Source of the DNA: a virus
Reading direction: 5' to 3' (one strand)
DNA: 64,000 nucleotides
Virus record (IMG/VR): IMGVR_UViG_3300010397_000042
Span: 1 to 64,000 of that record
Position 1 is the first letter of the stretch, and each line of letters opens with the position of its first letter. This document shows, piece by piece, positions 213 to 15,044 of the stretch. The notes under the pieces are model-generated. The model saw only the letters and a program-made list of their open reading frames with translations, was not told the DNA's origin and ran no database searches. The translations under genes and the position numbers were made by a program.

Positions 213-3200
213 ATGAGCACGAAAATTCTTACCGATCTGGAGGTCGACGCACCGCTCCAGATGAACGCGAATTACCGTTTCAGTCCACTCGACCGGCGAT
301 ACATTGATGAACAGATCATTGGGATCGAGACGCTTCTCGTGCGTGCCCTCATTCGGGGCAACATGGGGACATACTACACCCTCGATCCAGATTCGACCGC
401 CGTTCCCCCTGGATACGCGGTGTGTCTTGGAAGCGCGGCAACGGGTACGGTTACCCTTGCCGACGCTGCTGCTCTTTCTTTAGCTAAGGCTCCTGTCGGC
501 GTCGCCCTTCTTGGTGCATCCCCCGGCGGACGTATCTTCGTTGTTCACGCAGGTATCATTCCCCCGTCAGTCACTGGATTCGAAGGCGGTGCCCCTGGGT
601 TCGCCCGAGTAAACGTGTCGACCGGAGCTCTCGAACGTGTCGCATCGCTCGACAGCACGGACTACGCGATCGGAACGATCGACAATGCCGGCTGGCTTCA
701 GATTGGAAACCACTCGGCAGCGGCATCCGGCGGTGGTGCGTACTCGGAGGTTACTGCACCGCTAACGAACAACGGAACCGGTCAGCTCGATAACGTGTCG
801 ACGTTGAACAGTGGTCTTGCGGTAAGCGCGATTCGATTTACTGGTGTAGCCCCCGACGTAACGGGTCTTGCAAACGGAACGGCAGGACGCCGCGTTCATG
901 TGATCGCGGTCGGCGGTCCTCTTGTTCTCGAAGAGAACAGCATCTCGAGCTCGGCTGGGAATAAGATCAAGACTGGCGCCGGAAACATCGAGATACCGCA
1001 AGGCTCTGCCGGCTGGCTTGTCTACGATGCGAGCTCGAGTCCGGGATACTGGGTCCTTTCTCAAACCGGCCCGATGGGCGGGCAGGGTGCAACCGGCGCG
1101 ATCGGCCCGACAGGACCTCAGGGTAATACCGGTGCCGTAGGACCCCAGGGCCCGACAGGACCCCAGGGCCCGACAGGACCTCAAGGTAATACTGGAGCCA
1201 CGGGGCCCCAGGGTACCACCGGAGCGACTGGACCTCAGGGTTCAACGGGACCCGCAGCGGTCTCCGGTGAAATCCCATCAGCCTATGTACACGACGCGAC
1301 GTCGCAGAACACGAATAGCAACTCGTTCTCGGATGTCACCAATGCGACAACTACGATCACTGTCGCATCCACCGTTCCGATCGTGGCGATGGCATCGATC
1401 TCTTGGAACGCTGGTGCCACCAACACGGACGCTGCCTTCCGACTTGTGATCGATGCTCAGAACGGATCCGAGCATCATGAGATCGTCGATACATCAGGTG
1501 ATGCGAGTACACTCGGCTTGATGTTTGAGTCGACCGCCCTAGCTGCTGGTACGTACACCGTCAAACTGCAGTACCGCGCCATCGCAGGCACGGTGAACTA
1601 CGAGTCGTCATCCATCACCGTTGTCGCCATGCAGGCTTGCGTGGGACCCTCTGGCGCAACCGGCATCCAAGGTGCAACGGGACCCCAGGGTGCGACTGGA
1701 GCAGTGGGCGCAACCGGAGCTGCCGGAGCGGCCGGTGCCGCTGGCGCAACCGGAGCTGTAGGGGCGACTGGCGCCGTTGGCGCAACCGGAGCTGTAGGTG
1801 CCACCGGTGCAGTGGGTAGCACCGGAGCTACGGGAGCTACCGGCATCGGGTTCGGATGGACGACGGTTCTCGACCTCGACTTCACTGCCGAGTCTTCCCA
1901 GACACTATCGACCGACACGACGTATGTGATCGGTGGGATCAACTGGACGAAGCAGAACTCGACGAACGACTCCACTGCGATGGCCCTGACCAATGGGACC
2001 GGCCTCGTCATCGTCCCGAAGTCCACGAGCGACTTCTACCAGGGTACGACGACGATGCCCCTCATCAAGACGGCCCTCAGCAACATCAGCTCGAAGCTGA
2101 TCTTGGGAAAGAAGATCCGGATCTGGTACTACTGGAGCGCCCAGAACTCCAACGCGGACTTCGACGGTGAGGTCGCCGGCATCTCCGACGGCACCTCCTC
2201 CAACTGGTACGGGTACTACCGCGGCAAGGCGGGCGCGACGAACCTCATCTCCCGCATCCAGGGGGCGAACGTCGACAAGTCGCTAGCCATCGCGTACACG
2301 GTCGGCACGGCGAACAACGTGACGATGCTGGAGATCCCCGAGCTGGGGGCTCCGTCGGTGCAGACGTTCTACGGGCAGTATTCGTCGGGATTCCCCGCGG
2401 AGTCCGCGCTGACGGCCAACCGGTACGTCAACGACCAGGCGACCAACATCGTCGGCCTCACCAACTCGAACGCGGTGCTCTTTATCGGGGCTATGCGCGC
2501 GGGCTCGGGCACCGCGTACTCGACCACGCTCGCGAGGATCAAGATCGAGGTCCTCGACGTCGACACCATGAACAGCTCCCAGGGGGCGACGGGTGCCACG
2601 GGTGCCTCCAACGTGACGGTTGCAGCGTTTTCCAGCCGCCCGTCTAACGCGGCAAACAAGGTCTTTTATCCCACGGACGGGGGCTTCAACCAGGTCGCGG
2701 ACGGCACCAACTGGTACAACGTCGTCGCGGGGGTTCCCCTGCGGGAACCGGCGGATCCGTCGGGCTACACGCAGACGAACTTCGGAACGAGTACCGTGTC
2801 GCTCACCCACGGGTGCGTGCACTTTGCCCCGCAGGTGAATGCCGGGCCCATCCTCCGGATGGCGGGCAAAACGATCAACACGCTCGCGGGGTCGTCGATC
2901 ACGTGCTGCGCCCAGATGTCGAACGTCGCCCAGTTCAACGGGCCGGGCGTCTACATGCGGGAGACGAGCACCAGCAAGGTCATGTCGCTGACCCTCCAGA
3001 CCCAGACCGCGGCATCGAAGGACCCTTGGACCCTAGGGAAAGAGATCTGGACTAGCAACGGAGCAACTCGTAGCGCTTCTGGTTTTTACTACGCGTCTGC
3101 CTTCGTCGCGAATCCCGGACCCATCCTCTGGCGTCTGGAGATCTCGGGCTCCAACGTCCTTATCCGCGTGTCGACAGACGGTGGGCAGAACTGGTTTACC

Positions 3201-3332
3201 ATCGAGACCGTTGCGCTCACGACCCCGTTCACGACCCAACCGAACGAGTTCGGAATCTGTATGCACGTCGAGAACAATACCACTCCCGCCCCAGTGGGAC
3301 AGTTCCAGTACGTGGCATTCGTGGGAGATTGA
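213..3332 (+). CDS. Collagen-repeat tail fibre protein
   Basis: A 1039-residue protein, probably the trimeric fibre or host-contact protein at the tail tip. An N-terminal globular part of about 285 residues is followed by a first Gly-X-Y block (about residues 286-350, GPTGPQG type), a globular domain (about 355-470), a second Gly-X-Y block (about 475-545, GATGAVG type), a long beta-rich region (about 548-790) and a short third collagen segment (GATGATGAS) before the C-terminal domain. Collagen-like repeats form triple helices in many phage fibres. The ATG follows the preceding TAA without a gap. Antisense open frames across the repeats are shadows. Confidence 0.9.
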   Translation: MSTKILTDLEVDAPLQMNANYRFSPLDRRYIDEQIIGIETLLVRALIRGNMGTYYTLDPDSTAVPPGYAVCLGSAATGTVTLADAAALSLAKAPVGVALLGASPGGRIFVVHAGIIPPSVTGFEGGAPGFARVNVSTGALERVASLDSTDYAIGTIDNAGWLQIGNHSAAASGGGAYSEVTAPLTNNGTGQLDNVSTLNSGLAVSAIRFTGVAPDVTGLANGTAGRRVHVIAVGGPLVLEENSISSSAGNKIKTGAGNIEIPQGSAGWLVYDASSSPGYWVLSQTGPMGGQGATGAIGPTGPQGNTGAVGPQGPTGPQGPTGPQGNTGATGPQGTTGATGPQGSTGPAAVSGEIPSAYVHDATSQNTNSNSFSDVTNATTTITVASTVPIVAMASISWNAGATNTDAAFRLVIDAQNGSEHHEIVDTSGDASTLGLMFESTALAAGTYTVKLQYRAIAGTVNYESSSITVVAMQACVGPSGATGIQGATGPQGATGAVGATGAAGAAGAAGATGAVGATGAVGATGAVGATGAVGSTGATGATGIGFGWTTVLDLDFTAESSQTLSTDTTYVIGGINWTKQNSTNDSTAMALTNGTGLVIVPKSTSDFYQGTTTMPLIKTALSNISSKLILGKKIRIWYYWSAQNSNADFDGEVAGISDGTSSNWYGYYRGKAGATNLISRIQGANVDKSLAIAYTVGTANNVTMLEIPELGAPSVQTFYGQYSSGFPAESALTANRYVNDQATNIVGLTNSNAVLFIGAMRAGSGTAYSTTLARIKIEVLDVDTMNSSQGATGATGASNVTVAAFSSRPSNAANKVFYPTDGGFNQVADGTNWYNVVAGVPLREPADPSGYTQTNFGTSTVSLTHGCVHFAPQVNAGPILRMAGKTINTLAGSSITCCAQMSNVAQFNGPGVYMRETSTSKVMSLTLQTQTAASKDPWTLGKEIWTSNGATRSASGFYYASAFVANPGPILWRLEISGSNVLIRVSTDGGQNWFTIETVALTTPFTTQPNEFGICMHVENNTTPAPVGQFQYVAFVGD

Positions 3333-3501: not shown

Positions 3502-4083
3502 ATGAGACTGATTCACATACTGGCACTTATCCTTCTTCTTCTCTCTTGCGCGCTAAATCCCGAATCTTCCTCTCCGGAATGTCAGGCTCATATCAGCAGA
3601 GTTGAGTTTCATGTCAGCTCTTCGTTCACTGGGGATGAGCAGGTCAAGCTGCTTGAGGCTGCTCAGGACTGGGGCTTCTTCTCACAAGATCGTATCCGGT
3701 TCAAGTTGATATATGACGGATATACCCCTCCGGGAACACCGTCTATCATTCGGGTTCATTCGCAAGACGCGATTGTCCGGAGCTACGACGAGATCCAGCA
3801 GGCGATACGTGGCACCGACTATCAGGCTAATGGCTGGTACGAGCCCGTAGTGAATCGCCTCTATCTGGTTGTGGATCGACTGGATGGAGAGAAGTTCCGA
3901 CTCGTTGCCACTCATGAGATGGGGCACGCTGCAGGATTGCGGTGGCCCGATTGCGATGAAGATCTGAAGCAGACATGCGAGCACGCTCGTGACCCCAGCG
4001 CTCTGATGGCGCAAAGGTATTCGAATAACCCATTGGGTCCTGGAGACCTTGAGTTCTGTAGAGCCTCTTGTCTTTGTCCATGA
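3502..4083 (+). CDS. Metzincin-like zinc metalloprotease lipoprotein
   Basis: A 193-residue protein with a lipoprotein signal peptide (hydrophobic run ending in LLLLSC, so the lipidated Cys is residue 16). A zinc site HEMGHAAGL sits at residues 138-146 and a probable Met-turn, SALMAQ, lies near the C-terminus. In metzincins the third zinc ligand normally lies three residues after the Gly; here that position is Trp148, so the third ligand may be a His or Asp in the Cys-containing loop that follows (CEHARDPSALM). Likely an exported, membrane-anchored protease. The TGA overlaps the next ATG. First of four protease families in this operon. Confidence 0.75.
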   Translation: MRLIHILALILLLLSCALNPESSSPECQAHISRVEFHVSSSFTGDEQVKLLEAAQDWGFFSQDRIRFKLIYDGYTPPGTPSIIRVHSQDAIVRSYDEIQQAIRGTDYQANGWYEPVVNRLYLVVDRLDGEKFRLVATHEMGHAAGLRWPDCDEDLKQTCEHARDPSALMAQRYSNNPLGPGDLEFCRASCLCP

Positions 4084-4301
4084 CAGCAATAATCGTAGCC
4101 ATAGTCGGTCTGGGACTGACCATCATCGGTCTCATTGTCAAGCTAACCACATTCAACACTGAGATTCGCATCTGGGTAGAGGAGATGCGAAAGGAAATGC
4201 ACATTCTCAAGCGCGTTCCGATGCTGGAGTATCGCGTTGGGGTGCTCGAGAAGCACGCAGGAATCTTCCTGTTTCAAGAAGAGAAGAACGATGAAAATTA
4301 G
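4080..4301 (+). CDS. Single-TM coiled-coil protein, inner-membrane spanin candidate
   Basis: ATG at 4080 overlaps the previous stop (ATGA). The 73-residue product has one N-terminal membrane segment (residues 2-20) followed by a charged, heptad-like helical stretch. That is the architecture of an Rz-type inner-membrane spanin, and the next gene starts inside its 3' end and encodes a small lipoprotein, as in Rz/Rz1 pairs. A holin of another class is the alternative. Function is inferred from topology and context. Confidence 0.55.
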   Translation: MTAIIVAIVGLGLTIIGLIVKLTTFNTEIRIWVEEMRKEMHILKRVPMLEYRVGVLEKHAGIFLFQEEKNDEN

Positions 4302-4488
4302 ACTACTCTTAGCGCTGACTTTCCTAGGGGCTTGCTTTCAACTGACTCCTGGCGATCGAGCGCAGCTCGCGGACGATGCCAACAAGATCGAGCAGTGCCA
4401 GGAGCAGGGACGTGCCTGTAAGGCAGACGGCGGGACGCACTGCAAGGATACCTACAACGACTGTATGAAAGATGCCGGGCTTCACTAA
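4291..4488 (+). CDS. Small Cys-rich lipoprotein, outer-membrane spanin candidate
   Basis: A 65-residue product with a signal peptide ending in lipobox LGAC (Cys15) and four further cysteines in the mature part. It overlaps the preceding TM/coiled-coil gene by 11 bp in another frame. The pair would span the periplasm and fuse the membranes at lysis. Rz1 proteins are usually Pro-rich, which this is not, so the assignment is contextual. Confidence 0.55.
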   Translation: MKIRLLLALTFLGACFQLTPGDRAQLADDANKIEQCQEQGRACKADGGTHCKDTYNDCMKDAGLH

Positions 4489-4664
4489 TGGATGAACTAG
4501 CAGTACTTGCCAAGTGGACCGAGTTTCTCTTGGCTCACATGGACTTGATCATGATGATCAAGAATGCAATCGATGGTGGTGCGTCCAAGTCTGAGATCGT
4601 GAAGGCGATTGAAGCGGGAATGGTTGCAGCGAGTGACGCTGAGATGGATCGCGAGCTCGGATGA
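4488..4664 (+). CDS. Small hypothetical protein (58 aa)
   Basis: The ATG shares its A with the previous TAA, and the TGA overlaps the next ATG. Helical, acidic C-terminal half, no recognisable domain. Translational coupling on both sides supports it as a real lysis-operon gene. Confidence 0.65.
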   Translation: MDELAVLAKWTEFLLAHMDLIMMIKNAIDGGASKSEIVKAIEAGMVAASDAEMDRELG

Positions 4665-5335
4665 AACACTCTAGGCTTCCTGAGATTGTTGTTCCAGGTA
4701 AACGTCTCGGTCGACACATCTTGCACGATCCCCGATCCTTCGGGTTCGCTTCACCGCATACGACTCTGAAGTCGGCGAGCTGGAAACGCCACTGTCTTCC
4801 GTTCGATCAGGGAGATGTCGGTTCCTGCACTGGCAACGCGATGGCGGGCGCTCTCATGACCGAGCCGTTCTTCAAGTCAGGTCGAATCCTGACGGAGAAG
4901 GATGCAGTCGATCTGTATTCAACCGCGACTCATTACGACGGTGTGGTTGGAGTTTATCCACCTGATGATACTGGTTCGAGTGGGCTAGCCGTAGGGAAAG
5001 CTGCCAAGAAGCACGGTTGGATCAAGAGCTATCACCATGCATTCGGTCTGAACCAGACGCTTGCGGCTCTCGTCGCGTCACCGGTGATTATCGGTATTGC
5101 TTGGTACGAGGGCTTCGATAAGCCTCAGGGTCATGACGCCGAGCTCGTTATCGGCGGGGCCCCTCGTGGAGGCCACGAAATCGAACTTCTAGCGGTGGAC
5201 CTGGGTAAGAAGCAGGTTCGCATGTGCAACAGCTGGGGAACCGGTTGGGGCGACCATGGATACGCGGTTTTGTCGTTCGCTACTCTCGAGCGGCTTCTCA
5301 ACGAGGACGGAGACGTCGTCGTTCCGGTGCAGTAA
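4661..5335 (+). CDS. Papain-family (C1) cysteine protease
   Basis: A 224-residue protein with the complete C1 peptidase layout: oxyanion Gln50 and nucleophile Cys56 in QGDVGSCTGNA, catalytic His172 in RGGHEIELLAVD, and Asn190 in CNSWGTGWGDHGY. There is no signal peptide and only a short N-terminal extension in place of a full propeptide. C1 peptidases in phages are uncommon; roles could be processing of virion or host envelope proteins. It is coupled by overlaps to the lysis genes. The family call is strong; the substrate is unknown. Confidence 0.85.
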   Translation: MKHSRLPEIVVPGKRLGRHILHDPRSFGFASPHTTLKSASWKRHCLPFDQGDVGSCTGNAMAGALMTEPFFKSGRILTEKDAVDLYSTATHYDGVVGVYPPDDTGSSGLAVGKAAKKHGWIKSYHHAFGLNQTLAALVASPVIIGIAWYEGFDKPQGHDAELVIGGAPRGGHEIELLAVDLGKKQVRMCNSWGTGWGDHGYAVLSFATLERLLNEDGDVVVPVQ

Positions 5336-5565
5336 TGGAATACACAGTACGTCAGGGAAAGAGCTATCGGGCTAAGATCGAGTTACCATGGACCAAAAGG
5401 GCTTTTGCCACCGAGAGGATTGTCGCTGACCGTCTTCTCGACGCTGGGTTCATCAACGTCACGGTCAAAGCTGAAGGCGGTGGAGTCTATTGGGCCTGGG
5501 GCGAATGGCCAGGTTTCGATGCGACCTCCGAGGTCGATTACGTTACTAGGTTGGATGAATTATGA
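5335..5565 (+). CDS. Hypothetical protein (76 aa)
   Basis: Begins with an ATG that shares its A with the protease TAA and ends in a TGA overlapping the next ATG. Mixed alpha/beta, aromatic C-terminal half, no known domain. The 113-codon frame starting at 5224 is longer but would run through the protease gene, so the coupled ATG is preferred. Confidence 0.65.
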   Translation: MEYTVRQGKSYRAKIELPWTKRAFATERIVADRLLDAGFINVTVKAEGGGVYWAWGEWPGFDATSEVDYVTRLDEL

Positions 5566-5729
5566 TGAAGTTTACATCTTGGCAATTGGTGGTGCTCGTA
5601 GCAGTGATGTTCACTGCGATCATCGCATCACAGGTATTTGCTCCAGGTGTCGCGTCTACCGTGGTTGCCATGGCGACGGCACTCTTTGGAACGCTGTTTG
5701 TTCAGCGTGAGACCTCTGAGAAACAGTGA
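5562..5729 (+). CDS. Two-TM small membrane protein, holin candidate
   Basis: A 55-residue product with two hydrophobic segments (about residues 7-22 and 28-46) separated by a short turn and a charged C-terminal tail. This matches small two-segment holins that let the endolysin reach the cell wall. It lies two genes upstream of the GH25 endolysin. Assignment from topology and position. Confidence 0.6.
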   Translation: MMKFTSWQLVVLVAVMFTAIIASQVFAPGVASTVVAMATALFGTLFVQRETSEKQ

Positions 5730-5899
5730 CTTGGTACACGATCGAATACCTCGGTAAGAACCGATATCGATTGGTTGTGAAGTGGTGGGATCCGCGCTTT
5801 TGGCGGGAAGGCTACCGCACCCTCCGAGAGTCTGGAACAGGGCGACTGGAGAGTCTCTATCTCACGCTCGTACTGATTTGGACGGTGATGTGTAAATGA
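5726..5899 (+). CDS. Small aromatic-rich protein (57 aa)
   Basis: GTG start overlapping the holin-like gene's stop (GTGA), with the stop overlapping the endolysin ATG. Rich in Trp, Tyr and Arg, with a hydrophobic C-terminal helix that may associate with membrane. No domain recognised; the coupling supports a lysis-cassette role. Confidence 0.6.
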   Translation: MTWYTIEYLGKNRYRLVVKWWDPRFWREGYRTLRESGTGRLESLYLTLVLIWTVMCK

Positions 5900-6627
5900 T
5901 TCGCGGGTTCGATGCTTCGTCCTGTCAGGGTGTCCTGCCATTCAAGCAACTAAACTCCGAGTATAACTTCGTCATTCTGAAGGCCCAGCAGGGCAATGAC
6001 GGATTCGATCCTGACTTCGAAAGGAACATGCTCGATGGCTTTGCGTCCGGTCTCGAAGTTTTTGCGTACTGTTTCGGATATCCTTTACCTCCTAAGGATG
6101 GGCATCCTGGAAGAGATCCTCGAGTTCAAGCGAAGCTGTTCGTGGACCGGGTTTACCGGTTCCCCCAGATGCGAGGACGTCCGATCTTCCTCGACTTCGA
6201 ATGGCCCGAACCACAAGACTGGGTGAAGTGGGGAGTCACCGCTGCGTTTATCTCGCAGTGGTGTCGCGATTGTGCCAACGAGGTCTGGAGACTTACTGGT
6301 GTAAAGCCGATTATCTATACCTACCCGGACTGGTGGCATCATGTCTCTACAGCCGACGTCTCTTGGGCGAGTACGTTCAGGTTGTGGCTGGCTGCCTATG
6401 TGAAGGCATGGCCGACGGATGGGAGCTCTCCACATGTGCCGAAGCCGTGGGAAGATTGGCTCTTCTGGCAGTGGGACGGGAATGGTGGTTTCCGATTGCC
6501 CAATGGTGTGGACGCAGACTTTTGTGTTTTCAATGGCGATAGAGCTGCTCTCACAGCTTTAGCGAACCCCCGACCGGTTGACGGTATCGAGGGTGATGCA
6601 GCCATCCTAACGGTGGAGCGCGTATGA
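5896..6627 (+). CDS. GH25-family lysozyme (endolysin)
   Basis: A 243-residue muramidase of glycoside hydrolase family 25: N-terminal GFDAS motif, a central FLDFEWPE acidic motif typical of the active-site strand, and the late W-x-W-D strand (LFWQWDGNGGF). It would cleave the MurNAc-GlcNAc bond of peptidoglycan. There is no signal peptide, so release should depend on a holin, consistent with the upstream two-TM gene. Coupled by ATGA on both sides. Confidence 0.85.
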   Translation: MIRGFDASSCQGVLPFKQLNSEYNFVILKAQQGNDGFDPDFERNMLDGFASGLEVFAYCFGYPLPPKDGHPGRDPRVQAKLFVDRVYRFPQMRGRPIFLDFEWPEPQDWVKWGVTAAFISQWCRDCANEVWRLTGVKPIIYTYPDWWHHVSTADVSWASTFRLWLAAYVKAWPTDGSSPHVPKPWEDWLFWQWDGNGGFRLPNGVDADFCVFNGDRAALTALANPRPVDGIEGDAAILTVERV

Positions 6628-6986
6628 TTCGAGATGGCGAGAAGTTACTGCTGAGTTTCGATATCGGGAGTGTTCCATGGAAGTACGTCGAGTCTGACGA
6701 CAGCATCGAAGACGAGATGACAGAAGCGCAAGGCATCATGCGCGCAGATCGTCAGGTCGTCTATGTGAACCGCAGTGAAACACCGCCTGAGGGTTATGAA
6801 TACGTGTTCTTCCATGAAGCAGGACACGCGGTGTTCTTTACTACTGGTGTCAAAGAAGCACTGAAACAGATCACTGGATTCGAGGGGGACAAGTGCACCC
6901 AACTCGAAGAATTCCTGATGTCCAACTTGATGCATGCCATGTACGACACGCTCAAGCGTAACGGCTGGCTGAAGATTCCCTTATGA
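6624..6986 (+). CDS. HEXXH zinc metallopeptidase-like protein
   Basis: A 120-residue protein with YVFFHEAGHAVFF near residues 57-69, a zincin motif in an otherwise compact ImmA/IrrE-like layout, with a downstream acidic helix that could supply the third ligand (QLEEFLMSNLMHAMYDTL). No signal peptide. ImmA/IrrE-type peptidases cleave repressors in some mobile elements. Here it lies between the endolysin and a short gene, so the target cannot be assigned. Confidence 0.65.
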   Translation: MIRDGEKLLLSFDIGSVPWKYVESDDSIEDEMTEAQGIMRADRQVVYVNRSETPPEGYEYVFFHEAGHAVFFTTGVKEALKQITGFEGDKCTQLEEFLMSNLMHAMYDTLKRNGWLKIPL

Positions 6987-7126
6987 GCGACACAACCCTG
7001 GTTCTTGTGGTCCCAACGGCCACCCTTACACAAACCCAATCGTCGGCGACCCTCGAACTTGAAACGGACGTCGATGCAACCATGACTCAATCGGTACTTT
7101 CGGCGGAGCTTATTGAAAATGAGTGA
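6983..7126 (+). CDS. Small Thr-rich protein (47 aa)
   Basis: ATG overlaps the previous TGA. The protein is a beta-prone, Thr/Val/Leu-rich sequence with internal near-repeats (TxTLxxTQS). Short and of unknown function; could be a tail decoration peptide. Its stop lies within the start region of the next gene. Confidence 0.5.
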   Translation: MSDTTLVLVVPTATLTQTQSSATLELETDVDATMTQSVLSAELIENE

Positions 7127-7475
7127 CTTTACGATCAACCGCGGTGACACAACGGAGTGGAAGCTCACCGCTCGCAAAGACGGCGTAGCCATCGATCTGA
7201 CTGGTGGTCAGGTCTTCATGGCGGTTCGACGCAACTACGCGTCACCATTGCTATTTCAACGGACGAGTGCTGAGGACGGCGGCATCACGATCGACGATGG
7301 TACCGGTGGTACCGCGACGATCGAGCTCAAACCCGAGGACACCCTCAACCTAGCTAATGACGTTCTTTCGGTGGTCTATTCCATCCACGTCGTCACGGCT
7401 GCTGGCAAGCAGTACACCGTCAAACGGGGCACCCTCGAAATCGATCCGATTGCGTGGGATGGTGAAACACTCTGA
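7119..7475 (+). CDS. BppU-like baseplate or fibre-anchor protein
   Basis: A 118-residue protein. The N-terminal FTINRGDTTEWKLTARKDG and IDLTG strands match the N-terminal domain common in baseplate upper proteins (BppU-like). ATG at 7119 is preferred over the TTG at 7113. Likely structural and out of place among lysis genes. The promoter that follows overlaps its stop codon. Confidence 0.6.
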   Translation: MSDFTINRGDTTEWKLTARKDGVAIDLTGGQVFMAVRRNYASPLLFQRTSAEDGGITIDDGTGGTATIELKPEDTLNLANDVLSVVYSIHVVTAAGKQYTVKRGTLEIDPIAWDGETL

Positions 7476-7491
7476 GTTTTTGTGCTATAGT
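7462..7491 (+). promoter_or_regulatory. Phage promoter, ACTCTGAG family
   Basis: -35 GTGAAA fused to CACTCTGAG, 18 bp, -10 TATAGT with an extended TGC. Drives the phosphoesterase gene. The TGA of the upstream gene (7473-7475) lies inside the conserved block. Confidence 0.7.
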
Positions 7492-7511
7492 TCAAGGATA
7501 GTGGAGGATCC

Positions 7512-8333
7512 TTGGACAAAGGCAAAATACATGTGGTCATCGGCGACACCCAAGTCAAAGAGGGCGTACCGACCAACCATCTTTCTTGGATAGGGCAGTA
7601 CATCGTCGACCACTTTGCGGAGTGGCAACCTGACCTCAGTATCATACATACCGGCGACCATGCCGACATGCCGTCACTCAGTTCTTACGACAAGGGTAAG
7701 AAGGAGATGGAGGGCAGGCGTTACAAGGCAGATGTCCGAGCGTCCAACAACGGCTGGGACCTACTGAACGAACCGCTCTACGACTACAACAAGAAGCGCC
7801 GTAAGCCATGGGAGCCCAAGCGATTCATCACTCTTGGGAATCACGAGTATCGAATCAACAAGGCCTGCGAAGACACCGCTCAGTTGGACGGTGTCATCTC
7901 CACGGACGACTTGAACTACAAGGAGTGGGGATGGGAAGTGATTCCATTTCTCGAGATCCTCGACTTGGACGGTATCTGGTACAGCCACTACTTCTATAAC
8001 CCGCAAACCGGCAAACCGTACGGCGGTGCAAACCTTTACACGCGTCTCCAGACCATCGGGCATTCGTTCACGATGGGTCATCAACAAGGATTGAAGGTTG
8101 CGAGTCGCGAGGTCGGTAAGACCCGGCATTGCGGTCTCGTTCTAGGATCCACGTATCTTCACGATGAGAAGTACTTGGGCCCTCAGGGAAATGCGTATTG
8201 GCGAGGAATCGTTGTCTGCCATCAGGTCGAAAACGGTGCCTACGACAGGATGGAAGTCAGTCTCGATTTCTTATGCAGACGTTATGAGGGGAAGACCCTC
8301 TCGGAGTTTATGCGAGGAGTAGTAGCAGCATGA
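7512..8333 (+). CDS. Calcineurin-like metallophosphoesterase
   Basis: A 273-residue metallophosphoesterase with the five-part metal-binding signature: GDTQ near residue 11, TGDHADM near 48, LGNHEY near 111, and two late His clusters (IGHSF-GHQ and TYLHDEK). It would hydrolyse phosphomono- or diesters with two metal ions; nucleic-acid ends or cyclic phosphates are possible. TTG start at 7512, chosen because GGAGG sits 5 bp upstream. It has its own promoter and begins a three-gene unit with the trypsin-like lipoprotein. Confidence 0.8.
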   Translation: MDKGKIHVVIGDTQVKEGVPTNHLSWIGQYIVDHFAEWQPDLSIIHTGDHADMPSLSSYDKGKKEMEGRRYKADVRASNNGWDLLNEPLYDYNKKRRKPWEPKRFITLGNHEYRINKACEDTAQLDGVISTDDLNYKEWGWEVIPFLEILDLDGIWYSHYFYNPQTGKPYGGANLYTRLQTIGHSFTMGHQQGLKVASREVGKTRHCGLVLGSTYLHDEKYLGPQGNAYWRGIVVCHQVENGAYDRMEVSLDFLCRRYEGKTLSEFMRGVVAA

Positions 8334-9040
8334 AGTTAGGTCTTATCTTTGCGTTCGTTCTTTCTTTGGCAGCATGTGTCACGCCATTAGACGTGGTTCC
8401 ACCGTCCGTTTCAAAGGCTCCTGTCTCGAAGGAGCAATCGGCTTTCAGTCTCAGATCAAAGACGGTAGCTCTGGTCCGGGGCACCGATGATGGTCCGGCA
8501 CCTTTTTGCACCGGGGTCTGGGTTACGCCGAGCACATTCCTGACCGCGCAGCACTGCGTCGACGAAGATAAGATGGGAGGGGTGTTCGTTTACACCTCCG
8601 AGAGTGACGTCTTCGGAAAGGGCGATCCTCATCCGAAGGCCAACATTCAAGTGCGACTAGCTTCACTAAAGAAGGTCGATGCGATTCACGACCTGGCGCT
8701 GCTGCATGCTCCCGATCCTCCCGAACAACACGGCATCGTCGAGACGGTGGCTAGCCGAGTTACCGCCGGTCAATTCGTTCAGACCATGGGGCACTCGATC
8801 GGACTCTGGTACAGCTACTCAAGCGGTGACGTAAGCGCGGTCCGATGGATCGATGCTGGTGACGGCAGCATGATGTACGTCCAGACCACCGTTCCAACCA
8901 GTCCGGGTAACAGCGGTGGTGGACTCTTCAACGAGAACCTCGAGCTCGTCGGGCTCTGTCACGGCACGGTGAAGCACGGTCAGAACATCAGCTTCTACGT
9001 TCACGCGCAGCACATCGCCGAGTTCTTGAAGGATAAATGA
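8330..9040 (+). CDS. Trypsin-like serine protease lipoprotein
   Basis: A 236-residue protein with a lipoprotein signal (LSLAAC, Cys16) and a complete S1-type triad: His75 in TAQHC, Asp121 in HDLALL, Ser195 in SPGNSGGG. Probably lipid-anchored in the outer or inner membrane and active outside the cytoplasm. The start overlaps the phosphoesterase stop. No PDZ domain follows, so it is not HtrA-like in full. Such exported proteases could act in lysis, superinfection exclusion or as lysogenic conversion factors; which one is not shown by sequence. Confidence 0.85.
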   Translation: MKLGLIFAFVLSLAACVTPLDVVPPSVSKAPVSKEQSAFSLRSKTVALVRGTDDGPAPFCTGVWVTPSTFLTAQHCVDEDKMGGVFVYTSESDVFGKGDPHPKANIQVRLASLKKVDAIHDLALLHAPDPPEQHGIVETVASRVTAGQFVQTMGHSIGLWYSYSSGDVSAVRWIDAGDGSMMYVQTTVPTSPGNSGGGLFNENLELVGLCHGTVKHGQNISFYVHAQHIAEFLKDK

Positions 9041-9216
9041 CGCCCGAGCAGTTCTGCTACTGGCTCCAAGGCTTCTTCGAGATGACCGGCGACAAGGCCA
9101 AGCTGTCGCCCGAGCAGGTCAAGATGGTCCGAGATCACCTTGCCATCGTCTTCAAAAAGGTGACGCCACCGCTCAAAACTGTCCGTCCATCAAGGTGGGA
9201 CGGGAAGCTCTGTTGA
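9037..9216 (+). CDS. Conserved small phage protein (59 aa)
   Basis: ATG overlapping the protease TGA. It starts MTPEQFCYWLQGFFEM and continues LSPEQVKMVRDHLAIVFKKVTP, a pattern I recognise from many phage genomes without a known function. Helical, probably cytoplasmic. Confidence 0.75.
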   Translation: MTPEQFCYWLQGFFEMTGDKAKLSPEQVKMVRDHLAIVFKKVTPPLKTVRPSRWDGKLC

Positions 9217-12728: not shown

Positions 12729-12916
12729 CGGGGGATGATCCTCCCTTTGGTGATGTTCATCTTCTCGTCGAGCTCGAACTCGAGCGATGCGTACTCTCCG
12801 TACTCGAACCACTTCTCATCTTCTTCCTCGGACATGCCGAAGTGGTCGATAACCTCGTTCCACATGTCCGGGTCTTTGATGTCCTCGAGTACAACCTTGA
12901 TCGTCTTCTTCTTCAT
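12725..12916 (-). CDS. Small acidic protein (63 aa)
   Basis: Starts MKKKTIKVVLEDIKD, then strongly acidic. The small, coupled gene immediately downstream of the integrase could be a modulator, but nothing in the sequence shows it. Confidence 0.6.
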   Translation of the reverse strand: MKKKTIKVVLEDIKDPDMWNEVIDHFGMSEEEDEKWFEYGEYASLEFELDEKMNITKGRIIPR

Positions 12917-14154
12917 ACAGCCCTCAAGTGCCTCGGCTTAGGTACCTTCTCGAGCACCGCTTCAATCAACGGGGAGACGTCCGAGGCCTTCCTCTTCCCG
13001 TAGACCTGTTTCAACATTCGATCGTCTGAGTGTCCCATCAGCGGGTACGCAAGCTCGTAGGGGACGCCTGCCTGCATCAGCCATTGGGCAAATGTGCGGC
13101 GTAGGTCGGTTGGGCAGAAAGGCTCGAACACCGGAACCTTCTTGCACTCGGGACACTTCGGATCCCGACATGGCGTTCCCATGGTCTGAGAGGTGCCCCG
13201 AACCAAGCTGTTACCGCTCCTCCACCAGAGATTCTTGCTCTGCTCGCAGTCCTTGCACATCGACAGGTAAGCGCAGGCGATCAGGATGTCGCGTCTTACG
13301 TTGCCCCACGCGGCGAAGAGTGAGTCGTTCTTCCCGTCGGCGTTCCGCATGGCCCGCTCAAACAGGTGACGGCGATCGCTGGGGACGATGAACGTTCGAT
13401 CTCGGAGCTCGCGCTTCGTACCTCGGATGTGAACCTCGAACGTCTCCATGTTCATCTCAGATCGCTTGGAGTGCGCCACCTCGCTCGGGTAGGTCGATCC
13501 GGTCGAGACGATGAAGTCCAAGACACCGCCCTTCGCTGCCGATCGGTTCGCGTACCACCATCGCATAAACCGGTCGTACTCCTCTCGAGTCAGCCACCGT
13601 TCTCTAGGTACATAGAGAGCCTGGAAGTCTTCCGGCTTCATCTCGGTGACGGAGCCGCAACTCACTCCGTCCCGCTTCGCCATCTTCATCGCCATACTCA
13701 GGGCGGTGAGCTCCTTCCCGATGGTGTTGCCTTTGGTTCCCTCGTCGGTTCGCTGCTGAATGTACTGTCGTATCGTTTCTGGAGTGATCCCAGATAGGAG
13801 TAGATTCGGTCCCAATACACGGACAAGGACACCGCTCTTTTTCTCGTAGAACTTGATCGTGTCTTCCGCGAGCTTCTTTCGGGAGGGGTCATTGTTCTTA
13901 CGATTGCTCTTCAACCATTCGATCCGGTTGAGGAGAGCGGTGTTGAGGGTGCGCTCCTTTTTCTCGGAGCCGTCCACAGGATTCTTTCGGACCCGCTCGA
14001 GGTAGACGCGGTGGGCGGCGACATCGTCGCGCTGTCCGGTGCTCTCTCGGATGTGCCGTCCCCCCTTCGGATTCGGGAGCTGCATCCACCAGATCGTCGA
14101 GCCCGGGTACTTGAAGAGCTCTGGGTAGCGCTGATGCCGGATGTAGCCTGACAT
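12913..14154 (-). CDS. int: Tyrosine recombinase (integrase) with altered active site and zinc insert
   Basis: A 413-residue integrase. N-terminal arm-binding region (MSGYIRHQRYPELFKYPGST), SAM-like core, then the catalytic domain. Box I reads TGSTYPSEVAHSKRSEMN, where the usual TGxRxSE Arg is absent. The beta-hairpin Lys is present (RGTKRELRDRTF), box II reads LRRTFAQW with Arg but not the usual HxLR His, and MGHSDDRMLKQVYGK supplies box III His and the nucleophile Tyr. Between the hairpin and box II is an insert with two Cys clusters (CKDC, CRDPKCPEC), a probable zinc finger. ATG at 14154 follows AAGGAG. Recombines attP and attB if still active. Confidence 0.75.
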   Translation of the reverse strand: MSGYIRHQRYPELFKYPGSTIWWMQLPNPKGGRHIRESTGQRDDVAAHRVYLERVRKNPVDGSEKKERTLNTALLNRIEWLKSNRKNNDPSRKKLAEDTIKFYEKKSGVLVRVLGPNLLLSGITPETIRQYIQQRTDEGTKGNTIGKELTALSMAMKMAKRDGVSCGSVTEMKPEDFQALYVPRERWLTREEYDRFMRWWYANRSAAKGGVLDFIVSTGSTYPSEVAHSKRSEMNMETFEVHIRGTKRELRDRTFIVPSDRRHLFERAMRNADGKNDSLFAAWGNVRRDILIACAYLSMCKDCEQSKNLWWRSGNSLVRGTSQTMGTPCRDPKCPECKKVPVFEPFCPTDLRRTFAQWLMQAGVPYELAYPLMGHSDDRMLKQVYGKRKASDVSPLIEAVLEKVPKPRHLRAV

Positions 14155-14306
14155 GTTCGAGACTCCTTCCACTGTTCGAAGGCCTCACGTGAAACGCGAA
14201 TGGACCTCCCCGACACGAGGCGTGTGCACTCGCGAGCGATCTCATACGCGCGCGTCAAGCTAACGCAAAGCTCTTTCGAGATATCCTTTGCAGTCAAGTA
14301 CTGCAT
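13911..14306 (-). CDS. xis: Excisionase-like HTH protein, heavily overlapping the integrase
   Basis: The first ~50 residues (MQYLTAKDISKELCVSLTRAY...SGRSIRVSREAFEQWKES) form a typical MerR/excisionase HTH that binds bent DNA at att sites. The frame then continues for ~80 Ser/Arg-rich low-complexity residues inside the integrase gene. This tail is probably a read-on shadow, or the real product is a shift into the integrase frame at AAGGAGT near 14166. The HTH part is solid; the 3' limit is not. Confidence 0.55.
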   Translation of the reverse strand: MQYLTAKDISKELCVSLTRAYEIARECTRLVSGRSIRVSREAFEQWKESRTCQATSGISATQSSSSTRARRSGGCSSRIRRGDGTSERAPDSATMSPPTASTSSGSERILWTAPRKRSAPSTPLSSTGSNG

Positions 14307-14383: not shown

Positions 14384-14395
14384 TATTTACTCCTA

Positions 14396-14490
14396 GGTGA
14401 TTCGGCAGGACTCGAACCTGCACCTGGTGTTGCGTCTGCCAATTGCGCGCGGATCTCGTTAGCAAGACGAGTCCGTCACCCACGAATCAC
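14396..14490 (-). tRNA. tRNA-like element with abnormal arm order
   Basis: Perfect 8-bp acceptor GTGATTCG/CGAATCAC and a perfect T-arm GCAGG-TTCGAGT-CCTGC. The interior is odd: a 5-bp stem with 7-nt loop (CTCGT-CTTGCTA-ACGAG) precedes a D-arm-like GCG-CAATTGGCAGA-CGC, and position 37 of the loop would be T. No CCA is encoded. It could be a class II tRNA with a shrunken D-arm and long variable arm, or a decayed tRNA. Amino-acid identity is not assigned. Confidence 0.4.
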
Positions 14491-14566
14491 TCAGTATCGA
14501 ATCCGATCCAGTGAGCACCAGTGCCTCGATACCTCTGGACGTCGCTGCTCAATCGCTAAGTCCATA

Positions 14567-14639
14567 GGACAGATCGCGGACTCGAACCGCTGCCGAAGGA
14601 GGGCGACTCCCCGTTCAGAACCCCTCTGATCAATCTGTC
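14567..14639 (-). tRNA. tRNA-like element with a 7-bp acceptor and T-arm
   Basis: Acceptor GACAGAT/ATCTGTC is perfect and the T-arm is GCGG-TTCGAGT-CCGC. A D-arm-like TCAGA/TCTGA stem and a GGGGA/TCCTT stem enclosing GTCGCCC fill the middle. The loop nucleotide at 37 would be C and no CCA is encoded, so a functional identity (nominal anticodon CGC) is doubtful. Confidence 0.4.
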
Positions 14640-14701
14640 AAAAAGGGGCGACCTCTCCGTCACCCTCCACCACGCCAATCAAGTACCATTACCCAATTAG
14701 C

Positions 14702-15044
14702 GGTGGACAAGTCGGGAATCGAACCCGAGTCCGAAAAACATCCTCATTCCCTTCATTCACGTGCGTAGCCTCTGTTGTAGCCAGAGGCAGCATTCATGAC
14801 GGTCTACGTCGGTGTCATGCAGACGACCCTGAAACAACCACGACTCGGGTCATCCGTGGCGATTGCCCTATAGGTTTACCCTGGAGCGATACTAGGGCGA
14901 TATGTGCTCCAGAGTCCTCACTCAGGCCGCAGCCTGGAGCTCGGGGATTGCGTTATCGTTCGCAGTTACGTTTCCCGATTGAAGAGGTCGGGGCTCTTGC
15001 ACGCAGAGTCTGATTCCATTCTCCGTCGAAACCATTGCTTGCCC
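14702..15044 (-). ncRNA. ssrA: tmRNA (transfer-messenger RNA)
   Basis: The 5' end GGGCAAGCAATGGTTTCGAC carries the conserved GGTTTCGACGG segment, and the 3' end has TTTTTCGGACTCGGG and a TTCGATT T-loop ending in GTCCACC. The termini pair GGGCAAG with CTTGTCC (7 bp, one G-U). The tag frame starts at a GCG codon at 14963 after CGTAACT and reads ANDNAIPELQAAA then TGA at 14922-14924. Length is about 343 nt before CCA completion (final A not encoded). It rescues stalled ribosomes and tags nascent proteins for proteolysis. Phage-encoded tmRNA is known but uncommon. Confidence 0.9.

What the first reader, a model, noticed from the sequence alone, without database searches (positions are those of the whole stretch)
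3502..9040. Four unrelated predicted proteases in one lysis/envelope block
Within 5.5 kb there are a metzincin-like lipoprotein, a papain-type enzyme, an HEXXH protein and a trypsin-like lipoprotein with a full catalytic triad, interleaved with spanin-, holin- and lysozyme-like genes. Two are lipoproteins. One or two proteases are known in phages, but four catalytic classes together are unusual. They may attack envelope or host surface proteins at lysis or during lysogeny, or exclude competitors.
Basis: partly seen in the sequence, partly recalled or inferred. Interest (0 to 1): 0.78.

Follow-up and report, generated by a model that had tools for sequence, protein, structure and literature searches.

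The report
Phage lysis operon with four proteases
A virus that probably infects predatory soil bacteria (Myxococcota) carries, packed into one run of cell-bursting genes, two well-supported and two weaker protein-cutting enzymes; one is a widespread but little-studied phage lysis protein, and the others look like add-ons that may help weaken the host's outer layers before it bursts.

Summary
Window 3502-9216 is one tightly packed, co-directional gene run behind the tail-fibre gene, in an 89-kb contractile-tailed temperate phage whose capsid relatives lie in Myxococcota genomes. It encodes four protease-like proteins. (1) 4661-5335 is a papain-like cysteine peptidase (phrog_16701) with all catalytic residues. 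It is widespread in phages (549 IMG/VR relatives), sits beside endolysin and holin in Gordonia phages, and pairs with GH25 lysozyme in other relatives. (2) 8330-9040 is a trypsin-like lipoprotein, over Pfam's cut-off, triad H75/D121/S195. (3) 3502-4083 is a divergent matrixin-like lipoprotein. Four of 50 other papain-carrying phages also carry a small metzincin, three of them lipoproteins, with a normal zinc motif; the window's copy has a 13-residue insert before the third histidine. (4) 6624-6986 is a small HExxH protein, only weakly like M78/IrrE. Structure prediction failed for (3) and (4); activity is untested. No other phage examined carries all four. The papain-GH25 pairing is conserved; the rest are accessory. 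Best reading: a lysis operon whose endolysin is assisted by a papain-type peptidase and by exported lipoprotein proteases that loosen the envelope. Closest precedent: the phage-derived Listeria Mtz-Tim pair. The lysogeny/exclusion idea is unsupported. New variant of a known kind.

The parts
3502..4083 (+). Matrixin-like (metzincin) lipoprotein: lipobox LLSC (C16), H138 E139 H142, G145, third His H161 after a 13-residue insert (147-159, with C151 and C159), Met-turn M169
   Evidence: AF2 model low confidence, Foldseek hits mostly MMPs but E>0.1
4080..4301 (+). Small protein, N-terminal TM plus charged coiled-coil-like region; possible inner-membrane spanin subunit or holin accessory
   Evidence: translation; phrog_34309 weak; inference from layout
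4291..4488 (+). Small Cys-rich lipoprotein (lipobox LGAC) overlapping the previous gene; possible outer-membrane spanin subunit
   Evidence: sequence; no family match
4661..5335 (+). Papain-like (C1A-type) cysteine peptidase, phrog_16701; Q50, C56, H172, N190; no signal peptide seen
5562..5729 (+). 55-aa two-TM protein, holin candidate
   Evidence: translation; layout only (no convincing family match)
5896..6627 (+). GH25 muramidase, endolysin
   Evidence: PF01183 E 4e-22, phrog_291 E 1e-19
6624..6986 (+). 120-aa HExxH protein (H64 E65 H68, Glu95/96 as possible third ligand), M78/IrrE-like zincin candidate, no signal peptide seen
   Evidence: PF06114 20.2 bits below cut-off 22; phrog_1233 E 1e-5; AF2 uninformative
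7119..7475 (+). phrog_1084 protein of unknown function
7512..8333 (+). Calcineurin-like metallophosphoesterase, phrog_221
   Evidence: E 1.5e-44; 60 viral relatives
8330..9040 (+). Trypsin-like serine protease lipoprotein: lipobox LAAC (C16), triad H75/D121/S195, C60-C76 candidate disulfide
   Evidence: PF13365 E 6e-16 over cut-off; closest solved relatives are DegQ/HtrA-type proteases
9037..9216 (+). Small phage protein phrog_28500/35763, last gene of the packed run

Best explanation
This is the late lysis operon of a temperate contractile-tailed phage of a diderm, probably Myxococcota, host. A GH25 muramidase, a holin and a spanin-like pair do the standard work. The papain-type peptidase has no visible signal peptide, so it would be released with the endolysin when the holin opens. 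There it would cut a peptide or protein part of the wall (cross-bridges or envelope-tethering proteins). The two lipoprotein proteases would be exported by the host's own pathway before lysis and anchored in the membrane, where they clip envelope proteins and so make the cell easier to burst. This resembles in principle the phage-derived metzincin Mtz of Listeria. The small HExxH protein is an accessory of uncertain, possibly cytoplasmic role. The four did not evolve as one machine: the papain-endolysin pair is conserved, the others are separately acquired add-ons. Shown: gene order, packing, catalytic residues, relatives. Inferred: timing, export, substrates, activity.
For: Nearly every gene from 3502 to 9216 overlaps or abuts the next; gaps are 169 nt before the metzincin and 36 nt before the phosphoesterase, and promoter- or terminator-like sites do not exceed chance. 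Papain sits next to lysin A or endolysins in Arthrobacter phage Mufasa8 and, with a holin, in Gordonia phages Forza, GMA2 and Aleemily; near GH25 in L089, L090, L096 and L111; and L088 has TM protein - lipoprotein - papain - lysozyme-like ORF. Its active site is invariant. It is rare in Myxococcota genomes (3 of 379) and frequent in phages (549), so it is a phage gene. Metzincins co-occur with papain in G001, G003, G017 and G024. Host: the capsid profile rings at E 1e-103 in two Myxococcota genomes, and contractile-tail prophage relatives occur in G122 and G327, the latter with a GH25 relative after the tail genes. Precedent: Mtz-Tim are prophage accessory genes often downstream of holin-lysin that increase sensitivity to phage lysis (PMC8235301).
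Against: No activity, expression or localisation data. Some papain relatives lie outside lysis cassettes (Mycobacterium phage CRB2, Streptomyces phage Shaeky) and some apparently cellular loci encode it. Related metzincins in other phages lie outside the lysis genes (antisense among tail genes in G003, near an HTH-like ORF in G001), which fits a lysogenic accessory role as well. The metzincin has a disrupted zinc motif and might be inactive. Both structure models were low confidence.
Confidence: 0.5

Rival explanations
1. Only the papain peptidase and GH25 are lysis proteins. The metzincin, HExxH and trypsin genes are unrelated accessory genes that accumulated at a permissive spot behind the tail genes; some act in the lysogen (surface remodelling, predation-type secreted enzymes), others are near-neutral.
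For: Metzincins sit at different places and strands in other phages. No relative has all four. The metzincin has atypical codon usage (7th percentile). Myxococcota genomes are rich in metzincin-like matches (211 of 284) and carry many trypsin relatives.
Against: In the window they are embedded in the lysis gene run by 4-nt overlaps with no promoter signal above chance; the trypsin gene has typical phage codon usage.
Confidence: 0.33
2. The cysteine and zinc proteins are really peptidoglycan or isopeptide hydrolases rather than proteases, i.e. a multi-enzyme endolysin set for an unusual wall.
For: Papain sits beside endolysins, and the GMA2 match lies under features annotated putative lysin; papain-superfamily folds include NlpC/P60 and CHAP wall hydrolases (PMC10318531); mycobacteriophage endolysins often carry a peptidase next to a glycosidase domain (PMC3314691).
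Against: The sequence aligns with C1 proteases (papain, cathepsins, a bacterial cysteine protease) with the Gln/Cys/His/Asn set, rather than NlpC/CHAP models. It does not explain the trypsin-like lipoprotein.
Confidence: 0.12
3. The metzincin and HExxH calls are motif coincidences or dead enzymes; the block holds only two real proteases. (This can be true together with either of the first two readings.)
For: Both are below Pfam cut-offs, the metzincin zinc motif is interrupted, HExxH occurs 0.73 times by chance in this proteome, and models are poor.
Against: The metzincin is homologous outside the motif to canonical phage metzincins and its predicted strand/helix order fits a metzincin; the HExxH protein matches phrog_1233 at E 1e-5.
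Confidence: 0.3

Closest known systems
phrog_16701 cysteine peptidases of Arthrobacter/Gordonia phages
   Same: Full-length homology, same catalytic residues, same position beside endolysin (and holin)
   Different: No trypsin or metzincin found in those phage records; no experimental function found in the papers searched
Listeria Mtz-Tim (phage-derived metzincin and TIMP-like lipoprotein, PMC8235301)
   Same: Metzincin encoded by a phage-related locus, often near holin-lysin, with a lipoprotein gene close by; acts on the envelope and boosts phage lysis
   Different: Mtz is a secreted protein of a Gram-positive host with a dedicated TIMP-like lipoprotein substrate; here the protease itself is the lipoprotein. 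No direct sequence comparison was made
Matrixins (Pfam PF00413; bacterial example karilysin)
   Same: HExxHxxG, Met-turn with DPSALM, fold-search hits enriched in MMPs
   Different: 13-residue insert before the third His, below the Pfam cut-off, minimal lipoprotein form
Trypsin_2 / DegQ-HtrA-type serine proteases
   Same: Protease domain and triad
   Different: 236 aa with no room for a PDZ domain, lipoprotein, phage-borne
M78 ImmA/IrrE-type zinc peptidases
   Same: HExxH with downstream Glu pair
   Different: Score below cut-off; lies in a lysis gene run rather than beside a repressor
GH25 phage endolysins (phrog_291)
   Same: Catalytic domain present
   Different: No separate wall-binding domain identified here

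Membership tests
Papain-like C1 peptidases / phrog_16701 | Oxyanion Gln, catalytic Cys, His and Asn in order | tested here: met
   Q50, C56, H172, N190 invariant in 8 sequences
Papain-like C1 peptidases / phrog_16701 | Full-length profile match | tested here: met
   phrog_16701 residues 14-224, E 3.7e-50; generic PF00112 15.3 bits is below its 20.7 cut-off
Papain-like C1 peptidases / phrog_16701 | Proteolytic activity | not testable with these tools
   needs purified protein
Metzincin / matrixin (M10) | Contiguous HExxHxxGxxH/D zinc motif | tested here: not met
   position 11 of the motif is Trp; EH follows after a 13-residue insert. Four phage relatives have the canonical motif
Metzincin / matrixin (M10) | Met-turn downstream | tested here: met
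   DPSALM, M169 invariant in alignment
Metzincin / matrixin (M10) | Metzincin fold | tested here: inconclusive
   pLDDT 47.7, pTM 0.40; Foldseek hits largely MMPs and karilysin but best E 0.17
Trypsin-like S1 (Trypsin_2) | His-Asp-Ser triad and profile over cut-off | tested here: met
   H75/D121/S195; 59.9 bits against 27.6
M78 / IrrE-like | Profile over curated cut-off | tested here: not met
   20.2 bits against 22
M78 / IrrE-like | HExxH plus downstream Glu ligand | tested here: inconclusive
   H64 E65 H68 and E95/E96 present; ligand role not shown; model uninformative
GH25 endolysin | GH25 domain over cut-off | tested here: met
   79.8 bits against 27
Two-component spanin | Inner-membrane coiled-coil protein plus small outer-membrane lipoprotein, overlapping genes | tested here: inconclusive
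   layout fits (4080-4301 / 4291-4488); no spanin family match
Listeria Mtz-Tim-like pair | TIMP-like lipoprotein partner | not tested
   neighbouring 65-aa lipoprotein has no family match; no structure made and no comparison with Tim

The most novel reading that the evidence does not exclude
A staged, multi-protease envelope-disassembly cassette: membrane-anchored metzincin and trypsin lipoproteins pre-cut the tough envelope of a predatory myxobacterium, then papain and muramidase finish the sacculus when the holin opens. This would be a lysis mode beyond holin-endolysin-spanin.
Probability: 0.15. Interest if true: 0.75.

Novelty: new variant of a known kind. Interest (0 to 1): 0.45.

Why it matters
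The papain-like peptidase is carried by hundreds of phages and often sits next to their endolysins, yet no experimental study of it turned up in the library searched; a lysis role for it is directly testable in isolated Arthrobacter or Gordonia phages. The phage metzincin lipoproteins have no PHROG family match and would extend the single Listeria precedent found for a phage-derived metzincin that boosts lysis. If lipoprotein proteases help lysis in diderm hosts, lysis models need a protein-cutting step.

Tried and rejected
Relatives of the metzincin, HExxH and trypsin proteins by short peptide patterns in IMG/VR: none. tblastn in phage records: none for metzincin and HExxH; only partial DegQ/Do-type or unannotated matches for trypsin. 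Block genes in 60 phosphoesterase-carrying loci: none of the other three proteases; the trypsin in one such phage (L046) is in replication genes. First genome scan with the capsid alignment: nothing; the sampled Myxococcota search succeeded. Two Myxococcota prophages with the closest capsids (G390, G468) share only the capsid module in the parts read, so the block could not be compared there. G122 and G327 contractile-tail prophages show no papain or trypsin motif of this type and no metzincin of this family in the pieces read. AF2 of the HExxH protein alone was unusable and was not searched further. Weak PF00413 hits in two phosphoesterase phages are not the metzincin family. Enrichment of metzincins with papain (4 of 50 others against 0 real hits in 49 further records, which mix phosphoesterase phages and shorter papain fragments) is suggestive, not significant. 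An antisense ORF over the metzincin (3682-4089) was set aside.

Full report
Setting. The window is the first 64 kb of an 89,011-bp IMG/VR virus record. The record encodes a terminase, major head protein, tail sheath and baseplate wedge, a tyrosine integrase (12913-14172, minus) and a complete tmRNA gene (14701-15044, minus). It is a contractile-tailed temperate phage. Collagen-like tail-fibre genes at both ends of the record suggest a near-complete, circularly permuted genome (inference). Structural genes have close relatives only on short viral contigs. A capsid profile rings at E about 1e-103 in two Myxococcota genomes, and more distant contractile-tail prophages lie in others, so the host is probably a myxobacterium, a diderm (inference).

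The gene run. Between 3502 and 9216 all genes point the same way. Almost every pair overlaps by ATGA or TAATG; the only gaps are 169 nt before the metzincin and 36 nt before the phosphoesterase (and the sequence; small genes whose frame was mis-set were re-read by eye). Promoter- and terminator-like sites are no more frequent than in shuffled DNA. The simplest reading is one late transcript behind the tail genes, with all four protease-like genes translationally coupled to the endolysin genes.

The papain-like enzyme (4661-5335). It matches phrog_16701 over its whole length. Q50, C56, H172 and N190 are invariant across eight phage sequences, the relatives being 35-47% identical to the window protein. 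54 phage records match at over 80% coverage and an IMG/VR scan gave 549 confirmed relatives. In Arthrobacter phage Mufasa8 and Gordonia phages Forza, GMA2 and Aleemily it lies beside lysin A or endolysins and, in the Gordonia phages, the holin. In contigs L089, L090, L096 and L111 a GH25 relative is next to it or one small gene away, as in the window. In L088 the order is tail fibre, TM protein, lipoprotein, papain, lysozyme-like ORF. CRB2 and Shaeky carry it elsewhere. It is rare in Myxococcota chromosomes (3 of 379). It is therefore a phage gene with a recurrent lysis-cassette position. No signal peptide is visible, so release through the holin lesion is the natural inference.

The trypsin-like lipoprotein (8330-9040). 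It is over the Pfam cut-off with triad H75/D121/S195 and lipobox LAAC. Nearest solved relatives are DegQ/HtrA-type proteases. Only one of 99 other phage records searched has a Trypsin_2 protein, in a replication region. Distant relatives are common in Myxococcota (40 of 189 genomes at E 1e-8).

The metzincin-like lipoprotein (3502-4083). Alone it scores below the matrixin cut-off. Searching 50 other papain-carrying records with PF00413 turned up small metzincins in four: G017, G003, G024 and G001. Three have lipoboxes and one a cleavable-looking signal (by eye). One passes the Pfam cut-off. The window protein is homologous to the G017 protein (BLASTP 1e-11 for the pair; phmmer 4.6e-7 among about 31,000 ORFs), with the main similarity outside the zinc motif. 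G017 also has papain, GH25 and a related tail fibre. All relatives have contiguous HExxHxxGxxH. The window copy has 13 residues (147-159, with Cys151 and Cys159) inserted between HExxHxxGL and EHxxDPSALM. A disulfide-closed loop that still lets H161 reach the zinc is possible; so is a dead site. AF2 gave a strand/helix order like a metzincin but low confidence, and Foldseek's weak hits were largely MMPs and karilysin. In the relatives the gene is not in the lysis gene run: antisense among tail genes in G003, about 10 kb away near an HTH-like ORF in G001, opposite strand in G017, 1.5 kb upstream in G024. Its codon usage in the window is atypical (7th percentile). It is best seen as an accessory gene that in this phage has become part of the lysis operon. 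Myxococcota genomes are rich in metzincin-like matches (211 of 284), but the few top ones inspected are larger secreted proteins.

The HExxH protein (6624-6986). Scores are marginal (PF06114 20.2 against 22; phrog_1233 E 1e-5), and HExxH alone is expected 0.73 times in this proteome. The single-sequence model is uninformative. It may be a small zincin; protease function is unproven.

Is the set unusual? Given the papain gene, metzincins occurred in 4 of 50 other records, Trypsin_2 in 0 of 50, M78 in 4 of 50 (away from the lysis genes where placement is known) and phrog_1233 in 1 of 50 as a weak hit to an IrrE-like gene. No other phage had all four, so the combination is rare. Rarity in one genome is not evidence of a joint function. 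Many records are fragments.

Mechanism. The closest functional precedent found is Listeria Mtz-Tim, a phage-derived metzincin with a lipoprotein partner, often downstream of holin-lysin in prophages. [quoted passage not shown]). By analogy, exported lipoprotein proteases here could loosen the envelope while papain and muramidase act once the holin opens. The analogy was not tested by sequence comparison with Mtz. Lysogenic conversion or competitor exclusion has no positive evidence in this window but cannot be ruled out for the metzincin and trypsin genes.

Verdict. The lysis-side interpretation is plausible, and the 'four together' system is not supported by relatives.

Noticed in passing
window 14701-15044 (-): Complete phage-borne tmRNA gene (tag ANDNAIPELQAAA) next to the integrase; candidate attachment-site gene or functional phage tmRNA.
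   Followed up: partly
window about 14395-14660 (-): Two tRNA-like pieces with paired acceptor ends and T arms (GGTTCGAGTCC) but abnormal D and anticodon regions, between tmRNA and integrase; not called by ARAGORN.
   Followed up: no
window 213-3332 and record 86209-88692: Two collagen-like (Gly-X-Y) tail-fibre genes with similar N-termini at the two ends of the record; probably neighbours in the circular genome.
   Followed up: partly
G000 record; Myxococcota genomes G390, G468, G122, G327: Capsid and contractile-tail relatives place this phage group in Myxococcota; the tail sheath had no match in the phage records searched.
   Followed up: partly
window 7512-8333: Phage metallophosphoesterase phrog_221 with 60 IMG/VR relatives (up to 61% identity) in otherwise unrelated phages.
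   Followed up: partly
L167, L168, L169, L170: Small phage-borne metzincins, three of them lipoproteins, without a PHROG family match; placement varies like moron genes.
   Followed up: yes
L046 4559-5263: Secreted trypsin-like protease gene inside a phage DNA-replication module.
   Followed up: partly
L176, L177: Related small HELGH proteins in two phages that carry the phosphoesterase.
   Followed up: no
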